This document shows, piece by piece, positions 10,883-62,159 of a stretch of 64,000 nucleotides of DNA (position 1 is the first letter of the stretch; the number at the start of each line of letters is the position of its first letter). This stretch comes from Bradyrhizobium sp. NDS-1. GTDB taxonomy: Bacteria > Pseudomonadota > Alphaproteobacteria > Rhizobiales > Xanthobacteraceae. Below the pieces are notes generated by a model that had not been told where the DNA came from, made no database searches, and saw nothing but the letters and a program-made list of their open reading frames with translations. The position numbers and the translations under genes are program-made. The stretch spans positions 1,535,501-1,599,500 of the forward strand of contig NZ_CP136628.1 of assembly GCF_032918005.1 (NCBI RefSeq), in the 5' to 3' direction.

Positions 10883-13504
10883 TCACGCCCGCTGCACGAA
10901 GCTGTCCACGACCTTCTTCTCGCCGGCCTTATCGAAGGCGATGGTGAGCTTGTTGCCGTCGATCCTGGTGACGCGGCCGTAGCCGAATTTCTGGTGGAAG
11001 ACGCGGTCGGACAGCGAGAATTCCGAGGTGGTGCCGGTGGATTTGGCGACCAGTTCGCCCTCGATCGTCAGGGGACCGCGACGGCGCGAGGAGAAGCTGC
11101 CGAAATCGGGGCCCGATGTCGAGGAGGAGGAGAACGTCGCGGCCTCTTCCTCGAAACCGCCGCGCCCGCCACCATTGCGGCCGCCTTGTCCACCTCGGTT
11201 GCGGTTGGCCTGCGCGCGCTGCCAGCCCGGCGTCGAATAGGTGGAGCCGAACGCCTCCATGTCGTCGAAGCGGGAGGCGCCGTAGCCGCCGGTGCCGCCC
11301 CAGGCCGAGCCGCCCTTGGATTCCGTGATCTCGACATTGGCCGCGGGCAGTTCGTCGAGGAAGCGCGAGGGGATCGTGGTCGACCAGGTGCCGTGGATGC
11401 GCCGGTTGGTCGCGAAATAGATCATCGCGCGGCGGCGGGCGCGGGTCAAACCGACATGGCCGAGCCGGCGTTCTTCTTCCAGGCCGGCGCGGCCCTGTTC
11501 GTCCAGCGTGCGCTGGCTCGGGAACAGGCCTTCTTCCCAGCCGGGCAGGAACACGTTGTCGAATTCCAGCCCCTTGGCCGAATGCAACGTCATCAGCGAC
11601 ACCGCATCCTCATCGGCGCCGCTGTCGCGGTCCATCACCAGTGAGATGTGCTCGAGGAACCCTTGCAGGTTCTCGAACTCCTCCATCGAGCGCACCAGTT
11701 CTTTCAGGTTCTCCAGCCGGCCCGCGGCGTCCGCCGAACGGTCCTTCTGCCACATCTCCGTATAGCCGCTCTCGTCGAGCACGATCTGGGCGAGATCGGT
11801 GTGGGCGGTGACCTCGCGCTGGGCGCGCCAGCGATCGAACTGGGCGACGACGTCGCGAAGCGAGCCGCGCGCCTTCGGCTTCAGTTCGTCGGTCTCGACC
11901 ACCGCGCGGGCCGCCTCGAACAGCGGAATGCGGCGCTTGCGGGCGTGGTCGTGCAGCATCTGCACGGTGGCATCGCCGAGGCCCCGCTTCGGCACGTTGA
12001 CGATGCGCTCGAAGGCGAGGTCGTCGGCCGGGGAGTTGATGACCCGCAAATACGCCAGCGCGTCGCGGATTTCCGCGCGCTCGTAGAAGCGCGGGCCGCC
12101 GATGACGCGGTAGGGCAGGCCGAGCGTGACGAAGCGGTCTTCGAACTCGCGCATCTGGTAGGAGGCGCGCACGAGAATCGCGACCTCGTTCAGCTTCTCG
12201 CCGCGGCGCTGGATCTGCTCGATTTCCTCGCCGATGCCGCGGGCTTCCTCTTCCGAATCCCACGAGCCCGTCACCGTGACCTTCTCGCCGTCCTGGTCCT
12301 CGGTGCGCAGCGTCTTGCCGAGCCGGCCTTCATTGTGCGCGATCAGATGCGAGGCGGCAGCGAGGATGTGCCCGGTCGAGCGATAGTTGCGCTCCAGGCG
12401 AATGACCTTGGCGCCGGGGAAATCGTGGTCGAAGCGCAGGATGTTATCGACCTCGGCGCCGCGCCAGCCATAGATCGACTGGTCGTCGTCGCCGACGCAG
12501 CAGATGTTTTTGGTGGGGGCGGCGGGAGCGGCTGCAATCGCCGCCCGCTCCGTCCTTCCGGGATGCGCCGAAGGCGCAGACCCGGAATCTCGATCGTCGG
12601 ACTCACTGCCGGATTCCAGGTTCGGCTCTTCGAGCTGCCCCGGAATGACGGCCGGGGCGGCTGGCTTCGCGGCTGCAGCGGGCGCCTGCGACAGCAGCCG
12701 CAGCCACAGATATTGCGCGACGTTGGTGTCCTGATATTCGTCGACCAGGATGAACTTGAAGCGCTGCTGGTATTGCCGCAGGATATCCGGGTGCTCGCGG
12801 AAGATGCGGATGTTCTCCAGCAGCAGATCGCCGAAATCCGCAGCGTTCAGGATCTTCAGTCGCTCCTGATAATTCGCATAGAGCTTGCCGCCCTTGCCGT
12901 TGGCGAAGGTGGCGGCCTCGCCCGAGGGCACCTGCGACGGCATCAGGCCGCGGTTCTTCCAGCCGTCGATCAGGCCGGCCAGCATCCGCGCCGGCCAGCG
13001 CTTGTCGTCGATGTTCTCGGCCTGGAGCAACTGCTTGAGCAGCCGCACCTGGTCGTCGACATCGAGCACGGTGAAGTTCGACTTGAGCTGAGCCAGCTCG
13101 GCGTGGACGCGCAGGATGCGGCCGCCGATGGAGTGGAAGGTGCCGAGCCACGGCATGCCCTCGACGGCGTGGCCAAGCATCTGGCCGAGCCGGTGCTTCA
13201 TCTCGCGCGCGGCCTTGTTGGTGAAGGTCACCGACAAGATCTCCGCGGGACGGGCGCGGCCCTGGCTCAGGATATGGGCGATACGCGTCGTCAGCACGCG
13301 CGTCTTGCCGGTGCCGGCGCCGGCCAGCACCAGAACCGGGCCGTCGAGCGTCTCCACCGCCTCGCGCTGTTCCGGATTGAGGCCGGAGAGATATTTCGGG
13401 CCCACGGACGCGCGCGCACGCGCGGCGATGCCGCCGGCTGCGGGCTGGTGGTCGGGTACGCTGGTGATCTTGCTCGGCTCGGTCATGCGAATCATCGGCC
13501 CCAC
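10883..13504 (-). CDS. uvrD: UvrD/PcrA-type ATP-dependent DNA helicase with in-frame insert
   Basis: An 873-residue superfamily 1A helicase. Motif I AGAGTGKT is at residues 61-68, motif II DEYQDT at 255-260, motif III GDDDQSIYGWRG from 338, then LERNYRS, VSLMTLHSAKGLEF and GLTRARRR. UvrD unwinds DNA in nucleotide excision and mismatch repair. Between motifs II and III, residues 272-331 form an Ala/Pro/Ser/Glu-rich stretch not typical of the family; bases 12551-12650 within it are a palindromic repeat (see that entry), read in frame. The C-terminus has the Gly-rich linker and the HQKFGYGRVTRIDG Tudor-like motif expected for RNA polymerase binding. An alternative start at 13486 (MTEPSK) is possible. 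The insert lies in a surface loop by position, so the enzyme is probably active. Confidence 0.93.
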   Translation of the reverse strand: MGPMIRMTEPSKITSVPDHQPAAGGIAARARASVGPKYLSGLNPEQREAVETLDGPVLVLAGAGTGKTRVLTTRIAHILSQGRARPAEILSVTFTNKAAREMKHRLGQMLGHAVEGMPWLGTFHSIGGRILRVHAELAQLKSNFTVLDVDDQVRLLKQLLQAENIDDKRWPARMLAGLIDGWKNRGLMPSQVPSGEAATFANGKGGKLYANYQERLKILNAADFGDLLLENIRIFREHPDILRQYQQRFKFILVDEYQDTNVAQYLWLRLLSQAPAAAAKPAAPAVIPGQLEEPNLESGSESDDRDSGSAPSAHPGRTERAAIAAAPAAPTKNICCVGDDDQSIYGWRGAEVDNILRFDHDFPGAKVIRLERNYRSTGHILAAASHLIAHNEGRLGKTLRTEDQDGEKVTVTGSWDSEEEARGIGEEIEQIQRRGEKLNEVAILVRASYQMREFEDRFVTLGLPYRVIGGPRFYERAEIRDALAYLRVINSPADDLAFERIVNVPKRGLGDATVQMLHDHARKRRIPLFEAARAVVETDELKPKARGSLRDVVAQFDRWRAQREVTAHTDLAQIVLDESGYTEMWQKDRSADAAGRLENLKELVRSMEEFENLQGFLEHISLVMDRDSGADEDAVSLMTLHSAKGLEFDNVFLPGWEEGLFPSQRTLDEQGRAGLEEERRLGHVGLTRARRRAMIYFATNRRIHGTWSTTIPSRFLDELPAANVEITESKGGSAWGGTGGYGASRFDDMEAFGSTYSTPGWQRAQANRNRGGQGGRNGGGRGGFEEEAATFSSSSTSGPDFGSFSSRRRGPLTIEGELVAKSTGTTSEFSLSDRVFHQKFGYGRVTRIDGNKLTIAFDKAGEKKVVDSFVQRA
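12551..12650. repeat. cloverleaf-like palindromic element inside uvrD
   Basis: The outer arms CGTCCTTCCGGG (12551-12562) and CCCCGGAATGACG (12638-12650) are complementary with one mismatch. Inside are hairpins TGCGCC-GAA-GGCGCA (12564-12578), a longer imperfect arm CCGGAATC ... GGATTCC, and GCTC-TTC-GAGC (12625-12635). The layout and the core ACCCGGAATCTCGA are shared with the intergenic copy at 62078-62159. It is translated in the uvrD frame as residues 285-318 or so. Confidence 0.8.
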
Positions 13505-50929: not shown

Positions 50930-51152
50930 AAATCGAGATTAAAGTGGAGGCTTCTGTTGCCAGGTGCCTCCGAACCCCGCCTAACGGAGCTTAACCCGTT
51001 AGGACTTTAAGTCGGTCTTTCAAACTGCGTTACGCAGCCTGAGCAACCGGAGCAAAGTTGTCGTTGGCAACTATTGCAGTAGCCCGATAACGGCGGAACA
51101 ATACCGGGAAAAAGTTCGCCCTTTACGCCCTCGTCGATCCTATTTCGCCCCC
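50930..51152 (-). ncRNA. ssrA: tmRNA, coding piece (two-piece, permuted gene)
   Basis: Read on the minus strand, GGGGGCGAAATAGGATCGACG (start at 51152, given here in halves GGGGGCGAAATAGG and ATCGACG) is the 5' end of an alphaproteobacterial tmRNA. The tag reading frame at 51068-51030 is GCC AAC GAC AAC TTT GCT CCG GTT GCT CAG GCT GCG TAA, coding ANDNFAPVAQAA, the alphaproteobacterial type. Pseudoknot-like repeats follow, including the GGAGGC/GCCTCC stem at 50946-50971. The 3' end is approximate. It rescues stalled ribosomes and tags the product for ClpXP. Confidence 0.92.
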
Positions 51153-51190
51153 GCCAAAACCCGCTTCTAGGGTATGCCCCGCGTGGGCTT

Positions 51191-51275
51191 TGGTGGAGGC
51201 GCCGGGTACCGCCCCCGGGTCCGAATGGTTTATTGCGACGACCGTTTATTTCCATAGCCGGCGAACCGGCACCCC
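51191..51275 (-). ncRNA. ssrA: tmRNA, acceptor piece (upstream part of permuted gene)
   Basis: On the minus strand this piece lies before the coding piece and ends in GGCGCCTCCACCA at 51191. Its CGCCTCC pairs with the GGGGGCG that opens the coding piece, giving a 7-bp acceptor stem with a G-U wobble at position 3, the mark read by alanyl-tRNA synthetase. The 38 bases between the pieces (51153-51190) are removed in the mature RNA. The T-arm stem CCGGG/CCCGG encloses GGCGGTA rather than a standard TTC loop. The 5' end is approximate. Confidence 0.85.
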
Positions 51276-51393
51276 CAATATAGGGGGCAAACGTTTCGAA
51301 AGACAGGGGTTTGGCGTGGATTGCGTCCGGTTCCCTTTGGATAGGTTCCGGATGCGCTTGGCCGTGGCGCGACCCCTGTTCTAAGCTCCTGAC

Positions 51394-60576: not shown

Positions 60577-62070
60577 ATGCCCGCTGCCACCATTGCCCCG
60601 ACCCGCTTGCGTTTAGGGCTGGCCGCGCTCGCCGTCAGTGCATTCAGTGTGTTCGGCACGCCGGCACAGGCGCGCGGACCGGATGGCATCGCCGACGTTG
60701 CCGAGAAGGTCATCGACGCGGTCGTCAACATCTCGACCTCGCAGACCGTCGAAGCCAAGGGCGGTGTCGGCAATACCATGCCGCAACTGCCGCCCGGCTC
60801 GCCCTTCGAGGAGTTCTTCGACGACTTCTTCAAGAACAGGAAGGGCCCCGGCGGCAGCAAGGGCGGTGAAAATAGCCCGGCGCCGCGCAAGACCAATTCG
60901 CTCGGAAGCGGTTTCATCATCGACACGGCGGGCGTCGTCGTGACCAACAACCACGTCATTGCAGACGCCGACGAGATCCACGTCATCCTCAACGACGGTA
61001 CCAAGATCAAGGCCGAGCTCGTTGGCGTCGACAAGAAGACCGATCTCGCCGTGCTCAAGATCAAGCCGACGAAGCCGCTCGTCGCGGTGAAGTTCGGCGA
61101 CAGCGACAAGCTGCGCCTCGGCGACTGGGTGGTCGCGATCGGCAACCCGTTCAGCCTGGGAGGCACGGTGACGGCCGGCATCGTCTCGGCCAAGAACCGC
61201 GACATCTCCTCGGGGCCCTACGACAGCTACATCCAGACCGACGCCTCCATCAATCGGGGCAATTCCGGCGGTCCGCTGTTCAACCTCGACGGCGACGTCA
61301 TCGGCGTCAACACGCTGATCATCTCGCCCTCGGGCGGCTCGATCGGCATCGGCTTCGCCGTGCCGTCGAAAACGGTGGTGGGCGTCGTCGACCAGCTCCG
61401 TCAGTTCGGCGAGCTGCGCCGCGGCTGGCTCGGCGTGCGCATCCAGAGCGTCACCGACGAGATCGCCGAAAGCCTCAACATCAAGCCGCCGCGCGGTGCG
61501 CTGGTTGCGGGCGTCGATGACAAGGGGCCGGCCAAGCCGGCCGGCATCGAGCCGGGCGACGTCGTCGTCAAGTTCGACGGCAAGGACGTCAAGGATCCGA
61601 AGGACCTGTCCCGCGTCGTCGCCGACACGGCGGTCGGCAAGGAGGTCGACGTCGTCGTCATCCGAAAGGGCCAGGAGCAGATCAAGAAGGTCACGCTCGG
61701 CCGTCTCCAGGATCCCGACAAGGTGCAGGCCACGCTGAAGACCGACGAGCCGGCGCCGGAGAAGCCGGTGACGCAGAAGGCGCTCGGCCTCGATCTGGCA
61801 GTGCTGAGCAAGGATCTGCGCACGCGCTACAAGATCAAGGAGAGCGTCAAGGGCGTGGTCGTCACCAATGTCGAGGCCAATTCCGACGCCGCCGAGAAGC
61901 GGCTCTCCGCCGGCGACGTCATCGTCGAAGTCGCCCAGGAGGCGGTGTCGAGCGGCGCTGACATCCAGAAGCGGGTCGACCAGCTCAAGAAGGATGGCAA
62001 GAAGTCGGTGCTGCTGCTGGTCTCGAATGCCGAAGGCGAGCTGCGATTTGTCGCGCTGAGCGTACAGTAG
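60577..62070 (+). CDS. degP: Do/DegP-family periplasmic serine protease
   Basis: A 497-residue exported HtrA protease. A signal peptide (LRLGLAALAVSAFSVFGTPAQA) precedes a trypsin-like domain with the triad His126 (NNHVI), Asp156 (KTDLAVL) and Ser230 (GNSGGPL), then PDZ1 (LRRGWLGVRIQSVTDEIAESL in parts) and PDZ2 (VVTNVEANSDAAEKRLSAGDVIVEVA in parts). It degrades misfolded envelope proteins. The start at 60577 opens the signal peptide; the frame is open from 60493 without content. It completes the hflK-hflC-DUF2065-degP block. DegP and DegQ cannot be told apart here. Confidence 0.93.
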   Translation: MPAATIAPTRLRLGLAALAVSAFSVFGTPAQARGPDGIADVAEKVIDAVVNISTSQTVEAKGGVGNTMPQLPPGSPFEEFFDDFFKNRKGPGGSKGGENSPAPRKTNSLGSGFIIDTAGVVVTNNHVIADADEIHVILNDGTKIKAELVGVDKKTDLAVLKIKPTKPLVAVKFGDSDKLRLGDWVVAIGNPFSLGGTVTAGIVSAKNRDISSGPYDSYIQTDASINRGNSGGPLFNLDGDVIGVNTLIISPSGGSIGIGFAVPSKTVVGVVDQLRQFGELRRGWLGVRIQSVTDEIAESLNIKPPRGALVAGVDDKGPAKPAGIEPGDVVVKFDGKDVKDPKDLSRVVADTAVGKEVDVVVIRKGQEQIKKVTLGRLQDPDKVQATLKTDEPAPEKPVTQKALGLDLAVLSKDLRTRYKIKESVKGVVVTNVEANSDAAEKRLSAGDVIVEVAQEAVSSGADIQKRVDQLKKDGKKSVLLLVSNAEGELRFVALSVQ

Positions 62071-62077
62071 TTTCATC

Positions 62078-62159
62078 CGTCATTCCGGCGCGATGCGAAG
62101 CATCGAACCCGGAATCTCGAGGTTCCGGGTCTGGTGCTTCGCACCATCCCGGAACGACG
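62078..62159. repeat. cloverleaf-like palindromic repeat between degP and serB
   Basis: Outer arms CGTCATTCCGG (62078-62088) and CCGGAACGACG (62149-62159) pair with one mismatch. Inside are three hairpins: GATGC-GAA-GCATC (62092-62104), ACCCGGAATCTCGAGGTTCCGGGT (62107-62130; arms of ten, read as ACCCGGAA and TTCCGGGT) and TGGTGC-TTC-GCACCA (62132-62146). The core is shared with the copy inside uvrD. It lies between convergent genes and may end both transcripts. Confidence 0.8.

What the first reader, a model, noticed from the sequence alone, without database searches (positions are those of the whole stretch)
12551..12650. A palindromic repeat has become protein-coding inside uvrD
Bases 12551-12650 have the arms, the two GAA/TTC-capped hairpins and the core ACCCGGAATCTCGA of the intergenic cloverleaf repeat at 62078-62159, yet they are read in frame as about 33 residues of UvrD between motif II (DEYQDT) and motif III (GDDDQS). 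The flanking Ala/Pro-rich residues (272-284 and 319-331) look like extra linker. This resembles the Rickettsia palindromic elements that insert in genes, which are not widely described in Bradyrhizobium. The repeat's length (100 bases) is not a multiple of three, so flanking bases must complete the frame.
Basis: partly seen in the sequence, partly recalled or inferred. Interest (0 to 1): 0.82.

Follow-up and report, generated by a model that had tools for sequence, protein, structure and literature searches.

The report
DNA-repair gene loop built from repeats
In this soil bacterium a hairpin-forming repeat that normally lies between genes is translated as a floppy loop of the DNA-repair helicase UvrD, and in related bacteria the same spot holds repeats of other kinds, so one place in one gene has taken up repetitive DNA several times without losing its reading frame.

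Summary
Confirmed, and larger than reported. Window 12551-12650 is a CGTC-type REP dimer (Br-REP class). A covariance model built only from intergenic copies finds it at exactly those bases among 81 places in the 7.65-Mb genome, read inside uvrD (10883-13504, minus). Residues 273-328 are absent from E. coli UvrD; 277-328 are predicted disordered. Relatives do not lack an insert: 150 of 150 Bradyrhizobium UvrDs examined have a 55-97 aa linker there, and 143 match a profile made from intergenic repeats: A 75, B 17, C 50, A+C 1; codon-shuffled linkers 0. A Rhodopseudomonas and an Ensifer genome carry two further repeats at the site; 46 of 79 loci have at most 33 aa. Outside uvrD, 0 of 80 A places in the own genome, and 0 of 26 B and 0 of 22 C copies in two relatives, look coding. 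Hairpin arms inside uvrD change in pairs. Linkers of one type are nearest each other, so insertions were few and then inherited or exchanged. In-frame REPs are known; this multi-family hot spot I did not find in print.

The parts
10883..13504 (-). uvrD (DNA helicase II), 873 codons, GTG start as listed by the ORF tool
   Evidence: about 41% identity to E. coli UvrD structures, alignment
12725..12742 (-). helicase motif II, DEYQDT, residues 255-260
   Evidence: translation; coordinates computed from the codon number; motif name recalled
12521..12688 (-). extra linker, residues 273-328, absent from E. coli UvrD, mostly predicted disordered
   Evidence: residues 277-328 pLDDT under 50
12551..12650 (-). 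CGTC-type REP dimer (Br-REP class, family A), 100 bp, read in frame as about residues 285-318
12623..12637 (-). hairpin CAGCTC-GAA-GAGCCG in coding sense (left arm pair)
   Evidence: sequence; arm statistics
12593..12611 (-). central spacer, 19 bases in place of one base of the TCTCGAGA centre of the 82-bp intergenic form
   Evidence: by eye
12564..12578 (-). hairpin TGCGCC-TTC-GGCGCA in coding sense (right arm pair)
   Evidence: sequence; fold
12476..12493 (-). helicase motif III, GDDDQS, residues 338-343
   Evidence: translation; coordinates computed from the codon number; motif name recalled
62078..62159 (.). intergenic copy of the same repeat, 82 bp; one long hairpin as single strand, four-way cloverleaf in the family consensus
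   Evidence: G000:C1:1597578-1597659, 97.5 bits; this copy is one of the 14 in the model

Best explanation
A REP dimer of the CGTC/Br-REP class lies in frame in UvrD between motifs II and III and is translated as a probably disordered, Pro/Gly/Ser/Ala-rich, acidic linker. SHOWN: the site holds five distinguishable repeat families in Hyphomicrobiales (A, B, C in Bradyrhizobium; one more each in a Rhodopseudomonas and an Ensifer genome; A and B share a CGTC-type end, and C and the Ensifer repeat look alike by eye, so at least three clearly dissimilar groups), while a 76-105 aa C-terminal region of the same protein, also largely disordered in the window's model, holds none of A, B, C in 150 genes. 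SHOWN: within Bradyrhizobium linker type is almost independent of the flanking gene sequence, and hairpin arms change in pairs. INFERRED: few insertions were tolerated because the loop lies off the catalytic core; once there, the repeat made the loop longer and itself became a target for nested insertion, short-tract exchange between strains and arm replacement, while selection only keeps the frame open and the peptide hydrophilic. UvrD is then a safe harbour for REPs rather than a protein with a known new function.
For: Profiles built only from intergenic copies match 143 of 150 Bradyrhizobium linkers (A 75, B 17, C 50, A+C 1) and 18 of the 79 linkers, 7 of these 18 from outside Bradyrhizobium; codon-shuffled linkers 0 of 229 for each family at E<1e-3, 1 for C at E<0.05. 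The R. palustris MAG linker has 77 matches (both strands, itself included) in its own genome and 0 in three others; the Ensifer BR816 linker has 88 in its own. Linker type goes with the copy number of that family in the same genome (Mann-Whitney p 9e-8 A, 8e-8 C, 7e-5 B; regex classes, 11 unclassified of 150 left out, kinship not corrected). Nested states: C after a remnant of A in 8 of 50 C linkers, two or more A-type starts in 31 of 76 A linkers. No A, B or C match at E<1e-3 in up to 250 codons upstream and the whole part downstream of the linker in 150 genes. Flanks correlate across the linker (r 0.27, p 0.001, 77 genomes of one clade; 0.79 over all 142), linker type with neither flank there (r 0.02, p 0.22). 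Hydrophobic fraction of uvrD linkers 0.13-0.15; Cys in 1 of 76 A linkers against 34 of 128 readings of own-genome copies in that frame (first 11 codons).
Against: Linkers of one type are always nearer to another uvrD linker than to the sampled intergenic copies (A 76/76, B 17/17, C 50/50), so most of the 143 are inherited or exchanged, not fresh insertions; the intergenic sample comes from one genome per family. In the 65 genomes outside the main clade, type does correlate with three of four flank segments (r 0.17-0.32). Only 1 of 25 arm types in uvrD (15 of 75 copies) occurs in the own-genome intergenic set, so ectopic conversion is not shown. The Mesorhizobium L-8-3 linker has only one other match in its genome. 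7 of 150 linkers match no profile. The coding test could miss degenerate copies inside genes, and one search scored 150 of 6672 candidates. No expression or protein data were seen. The structure model is modest (pLDDT 68.9, pTM 0.42), and the position of the loop relative to the catalytic core was not measured.
Confidence: 0.62

Rival explanations
1. Selected module: the disordered acidic linker is useful (partner binding, tuning of helicase activity or mutation rate), and repeats are merely its recurrent raw material.
For: All 150 Bradyrhizobium genes examined keep a 55-97 aa linker and none has 21-25 aa; all three families yield similar composition: net charge -3.5 to -4.0, about half Pro/Gly/Ser/Ala, hydrophobic fraction 0.13-0.15. 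Di Nocera 2013 speculates that REPs in repair genes alter their activity (passage).
Against: Sequence is not shared between types; linker type hardly tracks the gene tree; deletion may simply be rare. In 46 of 79 loci the UvrD linker has at most 33 aa.
Confidence: 0.18
2. Nucleic-acid function: the hairpins in uvrD DNA or mRNA are kept because they act (transcript stability, pausing, replication or repair of the gene), with the peptide a by-product.
For: Arms inside uvrD stay paired while changing: A left stem 5.76 of 6 pairs against 4.51 (sd 0.16, max 5.08) in 5000 shuffles; C inner stem 5.57 against 4.00 (sd 0.22, max 4.87). Pairs such as L227/L220 share most of the linker but differ in the arms.
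Against: Shuffles do not correct for kinship. Paired arms also follow if arms are swapped as units or copied by template switching, without selection. A, B and C differ in layout. Seven linkers of 150 match no repeat profile.
Confidence: 0.12
3. Site-directed insertion: the REP-mobilising machinery favours this sequence, as some elements favour particular sites.
For: Five distinguishable families at one site; none of A, B, C in the other disordered region of 150 genes; 0 of 80 other A places of the own genome in genes.
Against: CGTC repeats were found without an associated transposase (Di Nocera 2013); insertion points differ by several residues by eye; no empty site among the 150 genomes, so no target duplication could be read.
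Confidence: 0.06
4. Annotation, assembly or chance artefact.
For: None found.
Against: Open frame in 150 of 150 genomes, coding-like by codon-position GC on both sides; model match E 7e-13; codon-shuffled control 0 of 229.
Confidence: 0.02

Closest known systems
CGTC-tagged REPs (Di Nocera, De Gregorio and Rocco 2013, PMC3733652)
   Same: Terminal CGTC, two head-to-head palindromes, many copies, mostly intergenic, present in Bradyrhizobium; REPs inside excinuclease ABC, UvrD/Rep helicase, recBCD and other repair genes are reported, and two Xanthomonas recB genes carry different REPs at about the same site (section 15)
   Different: I saw no Bradyrhizobium uvrD case in the text read (figure 7B and additional file 3 were not readable); the genus-wide, multi-family occupation of one site, its turnover and the paired arm changes are not in the passages read
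Br-REP1 / Br-REP2 (Hahn et al. 2016, PMC5082802)
   Same: Same sequence class; 12612-12650 is close to the Br-REP2 consensus; three palindromes as in Br-REP1 with flanks (section 15)
   Different: Described in 3' UTRs and intergenic regions; the Br-REP1 centre CCGGAATCTCGAGATTCCGG is interrupted in uvrD
Rickettsia palindromic elements (RPE; Ogata 2000 and 2002, not read, known here through passages of Delihas 2007, PMC2229807, and of PMC3733652)
   Same: 105-146 bp palindromes read in frame in conserved proteins; one decorated enzyme (guanylate kinase) is translated and active, with altered substrate affinity
   Different: RPEs hit many genes (19 reading frames in the passage read); here one gene is hit by several families, and the other sampled copies are intergenic

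Membership tests
CGTC-tagged REP | CGTC (or variant) at the terminus | tested here: met
   CGTC at both ends of 12551-12650, each read inward on its own strand
CGTC-tagged REP | head-to-head dimer of short stem-loops in many genomic copies | tested here: met
   81 places in the genome, a lower bound since 150 of 6672 candidates were scored
CGTC-tagged REP | no associated transposase | not tested
   statement of PMC3733652; flanks of copies not scanned for transposases
Br-REP1 | centre CCGGAATCTCGAGATTCCGG | tested here: not met
   uvrD copy has a 19-base spacer in the centre; the copy at 62078-62159 differs by one base
Br-REP2 | CGAGATTCCGGGTTCGGCTCTTCGAGCCGCCCCGGAATGA | tested here: inconclusive
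   plus strand 12612-12650 GATTCCAGGTTCGGCTCTTCGAGCTGCCCCGGAATGACG compared by eye with the consensus: two differences in the shared part, the first bases differ
Rickettsia palindromic element | palindrome in frame in a conserved gene | tested here: met
Rickettsia palindromic element | sequence kinship with RPE-4 or RPE-6 | not tested
   kinship of CGTC repeats with RPE-4/6 is taken from PMC3733652
MITE | terminal inverted repeats with target-site duplication | not testable with these tools
   no empty site among the 150 Bradyrhizobium genes examined

The most novel reading that the evidence does not exclude
The motif II-III loop of UvrD in Hyphomicrobiales is a selected, rewritable cassette: palindromic repeats keep landing there, are kept base-paired by coordinated arm replacement while being translated, and are exchanged between species as alleles, giving a repair helicase a fast-evolving module shaped by DNA palindromes rather than by codons.
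Probability: 0.2. Interest if true: 0.85.

Novelty: new variant of a known kind. Interest (0 to 1): 0.62.

Why it matters
In-frame palindromic repeats are known mainly as scattered cases in Rickettsia and some other species. A single site in one DNA-repair gene occupied in each of 150 Bradyrhizobium genomes examined, by several repeat families that turn over, offers a replicated natural experiment on how repeats become protein sequence, and makes the 2013 suggestion that REPs in repair genes change their activity and mutation rates directly testable by deleting or swapping linkers.

Tried and rejected
Rfam scan of the window: only two tmRNA models matched at the gathering score, no Rfam family for the repeat. 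First regex classification of linkers missed degenerate A copies, the window's own included; replaced by profiles, but the copy-number comparison still uses the regex classes (A 72, B 17, C 50; 11 unclassified left out). First version of the family A arm test used a wrong anchor and is void; redone. First coding tests by GC3-GC2: 0 of 71 pattern copies, then 2 'strict' and 10 'relaxed' of 72; the two strict ones (L322, L338) have flanks whose richest codon position is not the third on both sides, so I judged them not coding; the stricter test is. For the loci found by short patterns (23 A, 26 B, 22 C) one search took the matched motif, not the whole repeat, as the interval that the frame must cross. 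The idea that every type switch is a fresh insertion was rejected. The idea that the whole element is inverted in L110 was not supported by alignment (plus 89%, minus 81%), though the centre motif occurs in both orientations. A search for import tracts near the linker showed none: near/far flank divergence 0.98 for nearest neighbours of different type, 0.99 for same type. The parsimony count (48 type changes on the uvrD tree, 200 label shuffles mean 56, minimum 50) shows weak association with the tree but, with recombination likely, is not a count of insertions. The Mesorhizobium L-8-3 linker failed the multi-copy test.

Full report
OBSERVATION. The window's uvrD is one open frame, 10883-13504 minus, 873 codons. 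Bases 12551-12650 share arms, two capped hairpins and core with the intergenic element at 62078-62159 and fold better than all 200 shuffles on either strand. I built a covariance model from 14 intergenic copies of the own genome (alignment, model; the consensus structure is a four-way cloverleaf). It finds 147 matches, both strands counted, which are 81 places in the 7,645,890-base genome, and one of them is exactly 12551-12650 (76.9 bits). Only 150 of 6672 first-look candidates were scored, so 81 is a lower bound.

WHAT THE INSERT IS IN THE PROTEIN. Against E. coli UvrD (3lfu) query residues 39-272 align to 7-237 and 329-725 to 238-642: residues 273-328 are extra, between motif II and motif III (names recalled). 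An AlphaFold2 model from 39 sequences (pLDDT 68.9, pTM 0.42) puts helix 262-272 and strand 333-339 on either side and gives residues 277-328 pLDDT under 50, so the linker is probably disordered. The best Foldseek hits are UvrD, PcrA and Rep structures, with low TM-scores; I use the model only for local disorder.

RELATIVES. Of 195 Bradyrhizobium genomes searched, all have a UvrD match; the 150 with listed coordinates, which are the best-scoring, were fetched and 45 were not examined. All 150 have a linker of 55-97 aa between DEYQDT and GDDDQS. Of 80 loci from a second collection (it includes some of the same strains), 79 gave a segment (L083 did not): at most 33 aa in 46, 34-59 aa in 4, 60 or more in 29.

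SEVERAL FAMILIES. Profiles were built only from intergenic copies: A from 21 distinct sequences of the own genome, B from 26 of genome G053, C from 22 of G002. At E<1e-3 they match A 75, B 17, C 50 and A+C 1 of the 150 Bradyrhizobium linkers; 7 match none (L130, L162, L180, L185, L249, L251, L253). Of the 79 linkers A matches 6, B 4, C 8. Codon-shuffled linkers: 0 of 229 for each family at that cut-off. Seven of those 18 come from records titled Rhodopseudomonas infernalis, Nitrobacter, Rhodoplanes, Pseudorhodoplanes, Pseudolabrys, Xanthobacteraceae and Proteobacteria; the other 11 are titled Bradyrhizobium or, for L024, Bradyrhizobiaceae. Two further repeats sit at the site: the R. palustris MAG linker has 77 matches in its genome and 0 in three other genomes; the Ensifer BR816 linker has 88 in its own, with weaker matches in a Mesorhizobium MAG (65) and the R. 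palustris MAG (50) and none in Mesorhizobium L-8-3. These counts take both strands and the query itself. A and B share a CGTC-type end, and C and the Ensifer repeat are both CTCCCC-rich palindromes by eye, so 'five families' means five that the profiles or searches tell apart, in at least three clearly dissimilar groups. The Mesorhizobium L-8-3 linker has only one other match in its genome, so its long linker is not shown to be a repeat. Exact-pattern counts over 195 genomes (A in 161, B in 134, C in 167 genomes; reversed-pattern control 0 throughout) are higher in genomes whose own uvrD carries that type, a comparison not corrected for kinship.

HOW SPECIAL IS THE SITE. With a coding test (open frame at least 30 aa on both sides, third codon position richest and second poorest in GC on both sides) uvrD copies pass 150 of 150. 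The 95 own-genome loci that cover the 80 other A places pass 0, B copies 0 of 26, C copies 0 of 22. Degenerate copies inside genes could have been missed. The 76-105 aa C-terminal region of the same protein (in the window's own UvrD residues 731-765 and 770-822 have pLDDT under 50) has no A, B or C match at E<1e-3 in 150 genes, nor has the rest of the gene examined, so permissiveness alone does not fully explain the site.

DYNAMICS. Linker type is nearly uncoupled from the gene: at least 48 type changes on the uvrD tree of 153 rows, 143 labelled, against a shuffled mean of 56 (minimum of 200 shuffles 50). Neighbours about 98% identical in 600-bp flanks carry different families (L219 A / L241 C; L177 B / L188 C). 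In the main clade (77 genomes) left and right flanks correlate with each other (r 0.27, p 0.001) but type correlates with neither (r 0.02, p 0.22); in the remaining 65 genomes type does correlate with three of four flank segments. Flank divergence is not raised next to the linker. However, linkers of one type are in every case nearest to another uvrD linker, not to the sampled intergenic copies. The best reading is few insertions followed by exchange of short tracts or old shared alleles, plus nesting: C after a remnant of A in 8 of 50, repeated A-type starts in 31 of 76.

PAIRED ARMS. Inside the coding copies the hairpin arms vary in step: A left stem, 75 of 76 copies read, 25 distinct, 5.76 of 6 pairs (G-T counted as a pair) against 4.51 (sd 0.16, maximum 5.08) in 5000 arm shuffles; C inner stem, 41 of 51 copies read, 23 distinct, 5.57 of 6 against 4.00 (sd 0.22, maximum 4.87). 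Shuffles ignore kinship. L227 and L220, 96.6% identical in flanks, share most of the linker but read HAEGM against RLDEA in the arms, with two further differing residues nearby. Whether this is conversion from other copies, template switching or selection is open; only 1 of 25 arm types (15 of 75 copies) occurs in the own-genome intergenic set.

PROTEIN FILTER. B is read in the more hydrophilic of its two forward open frames in 15 of 15 copies with the exact motif, although the other forward frame is open in more intergenic copies (20 against 16 of 26). Linkers have a hydrophobic fraction of 0.13-0.15 and a net charge of about -4. Cys occurs in 1 of 76 A linkers, but in the first 11 codons of 34 of 128 readings of own-genome copies in the uvrD frame. 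This fits selection on the peptide only for harmlessness, though inheritance from few ancestors gives the same pattern.

LITERATURE. Searches were run; of those naming uvrD, helicase or in-frame insertion (35, 73, 74 and 75, the last with 12 of 34 papers listed) one relevant paper appeared, Di Nocera 2013, which reports REPs inside repair genes including UvrD/Rep helicase; I saw its abstract, passages and section 15, not figure 7B or the additional files. Hahn 2016 names Br-REP1 and Br-REP2 in intergenic regions (passages and section 15). Delihas 2007 reviews in-frame elements (passages). I found no description of this hot spot in the library searched, which lacks most subscription journals.

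VERDICT. Real, a known kind of element (CGTC-type REP) and a known kind of event (in-frame REP), in a form I did not find described: one loop of one repair gene filled by several repeat families with turnover. Function of the linker is inferred, not shown.

Noticed in passing
50943-51309 minus: Alphaproteobacterial tmRNA gene, Rfam RF01849, 318 bits; the permuted-tmRNA model RF04321 matches inside it.
   Followed up: no
62078-62159: The intergenic copy starts 7 bases after a TAG at 62068-62070 that appears to end an upstream frame (by eye), the 3'-end position described for Br-REPs.
   Followed up: no
own genome, e.g. L325-L327, L330, L331, L334, L335: A second size class of the repeat, about 105 bp, with a CCATC/CCATT...GATGG or AATGG centre whose inner spacer differs from copy to copy, next to the 82-bp class and a class with a GCGCAATTGCGC hairpin.
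   Followed up: partly
uvrD linkers of family A, e.g. L113 and L110: A centre motif occurs as GATGAGTCC or a near variant in 18 and as GAGGACTC in 24 of 76 A linkers, and in 0 of 72 own-genome intergenic copies; it may mark descent of uvrD alleles or local inversion.
   Followed up: partly
Mesorhizobium loci L046 and L080: Long uvrD linkers with a shared peptide PAPSGAE, twice in L046; for the L046 linker only one other genomic match was found.
   Followed up: partly
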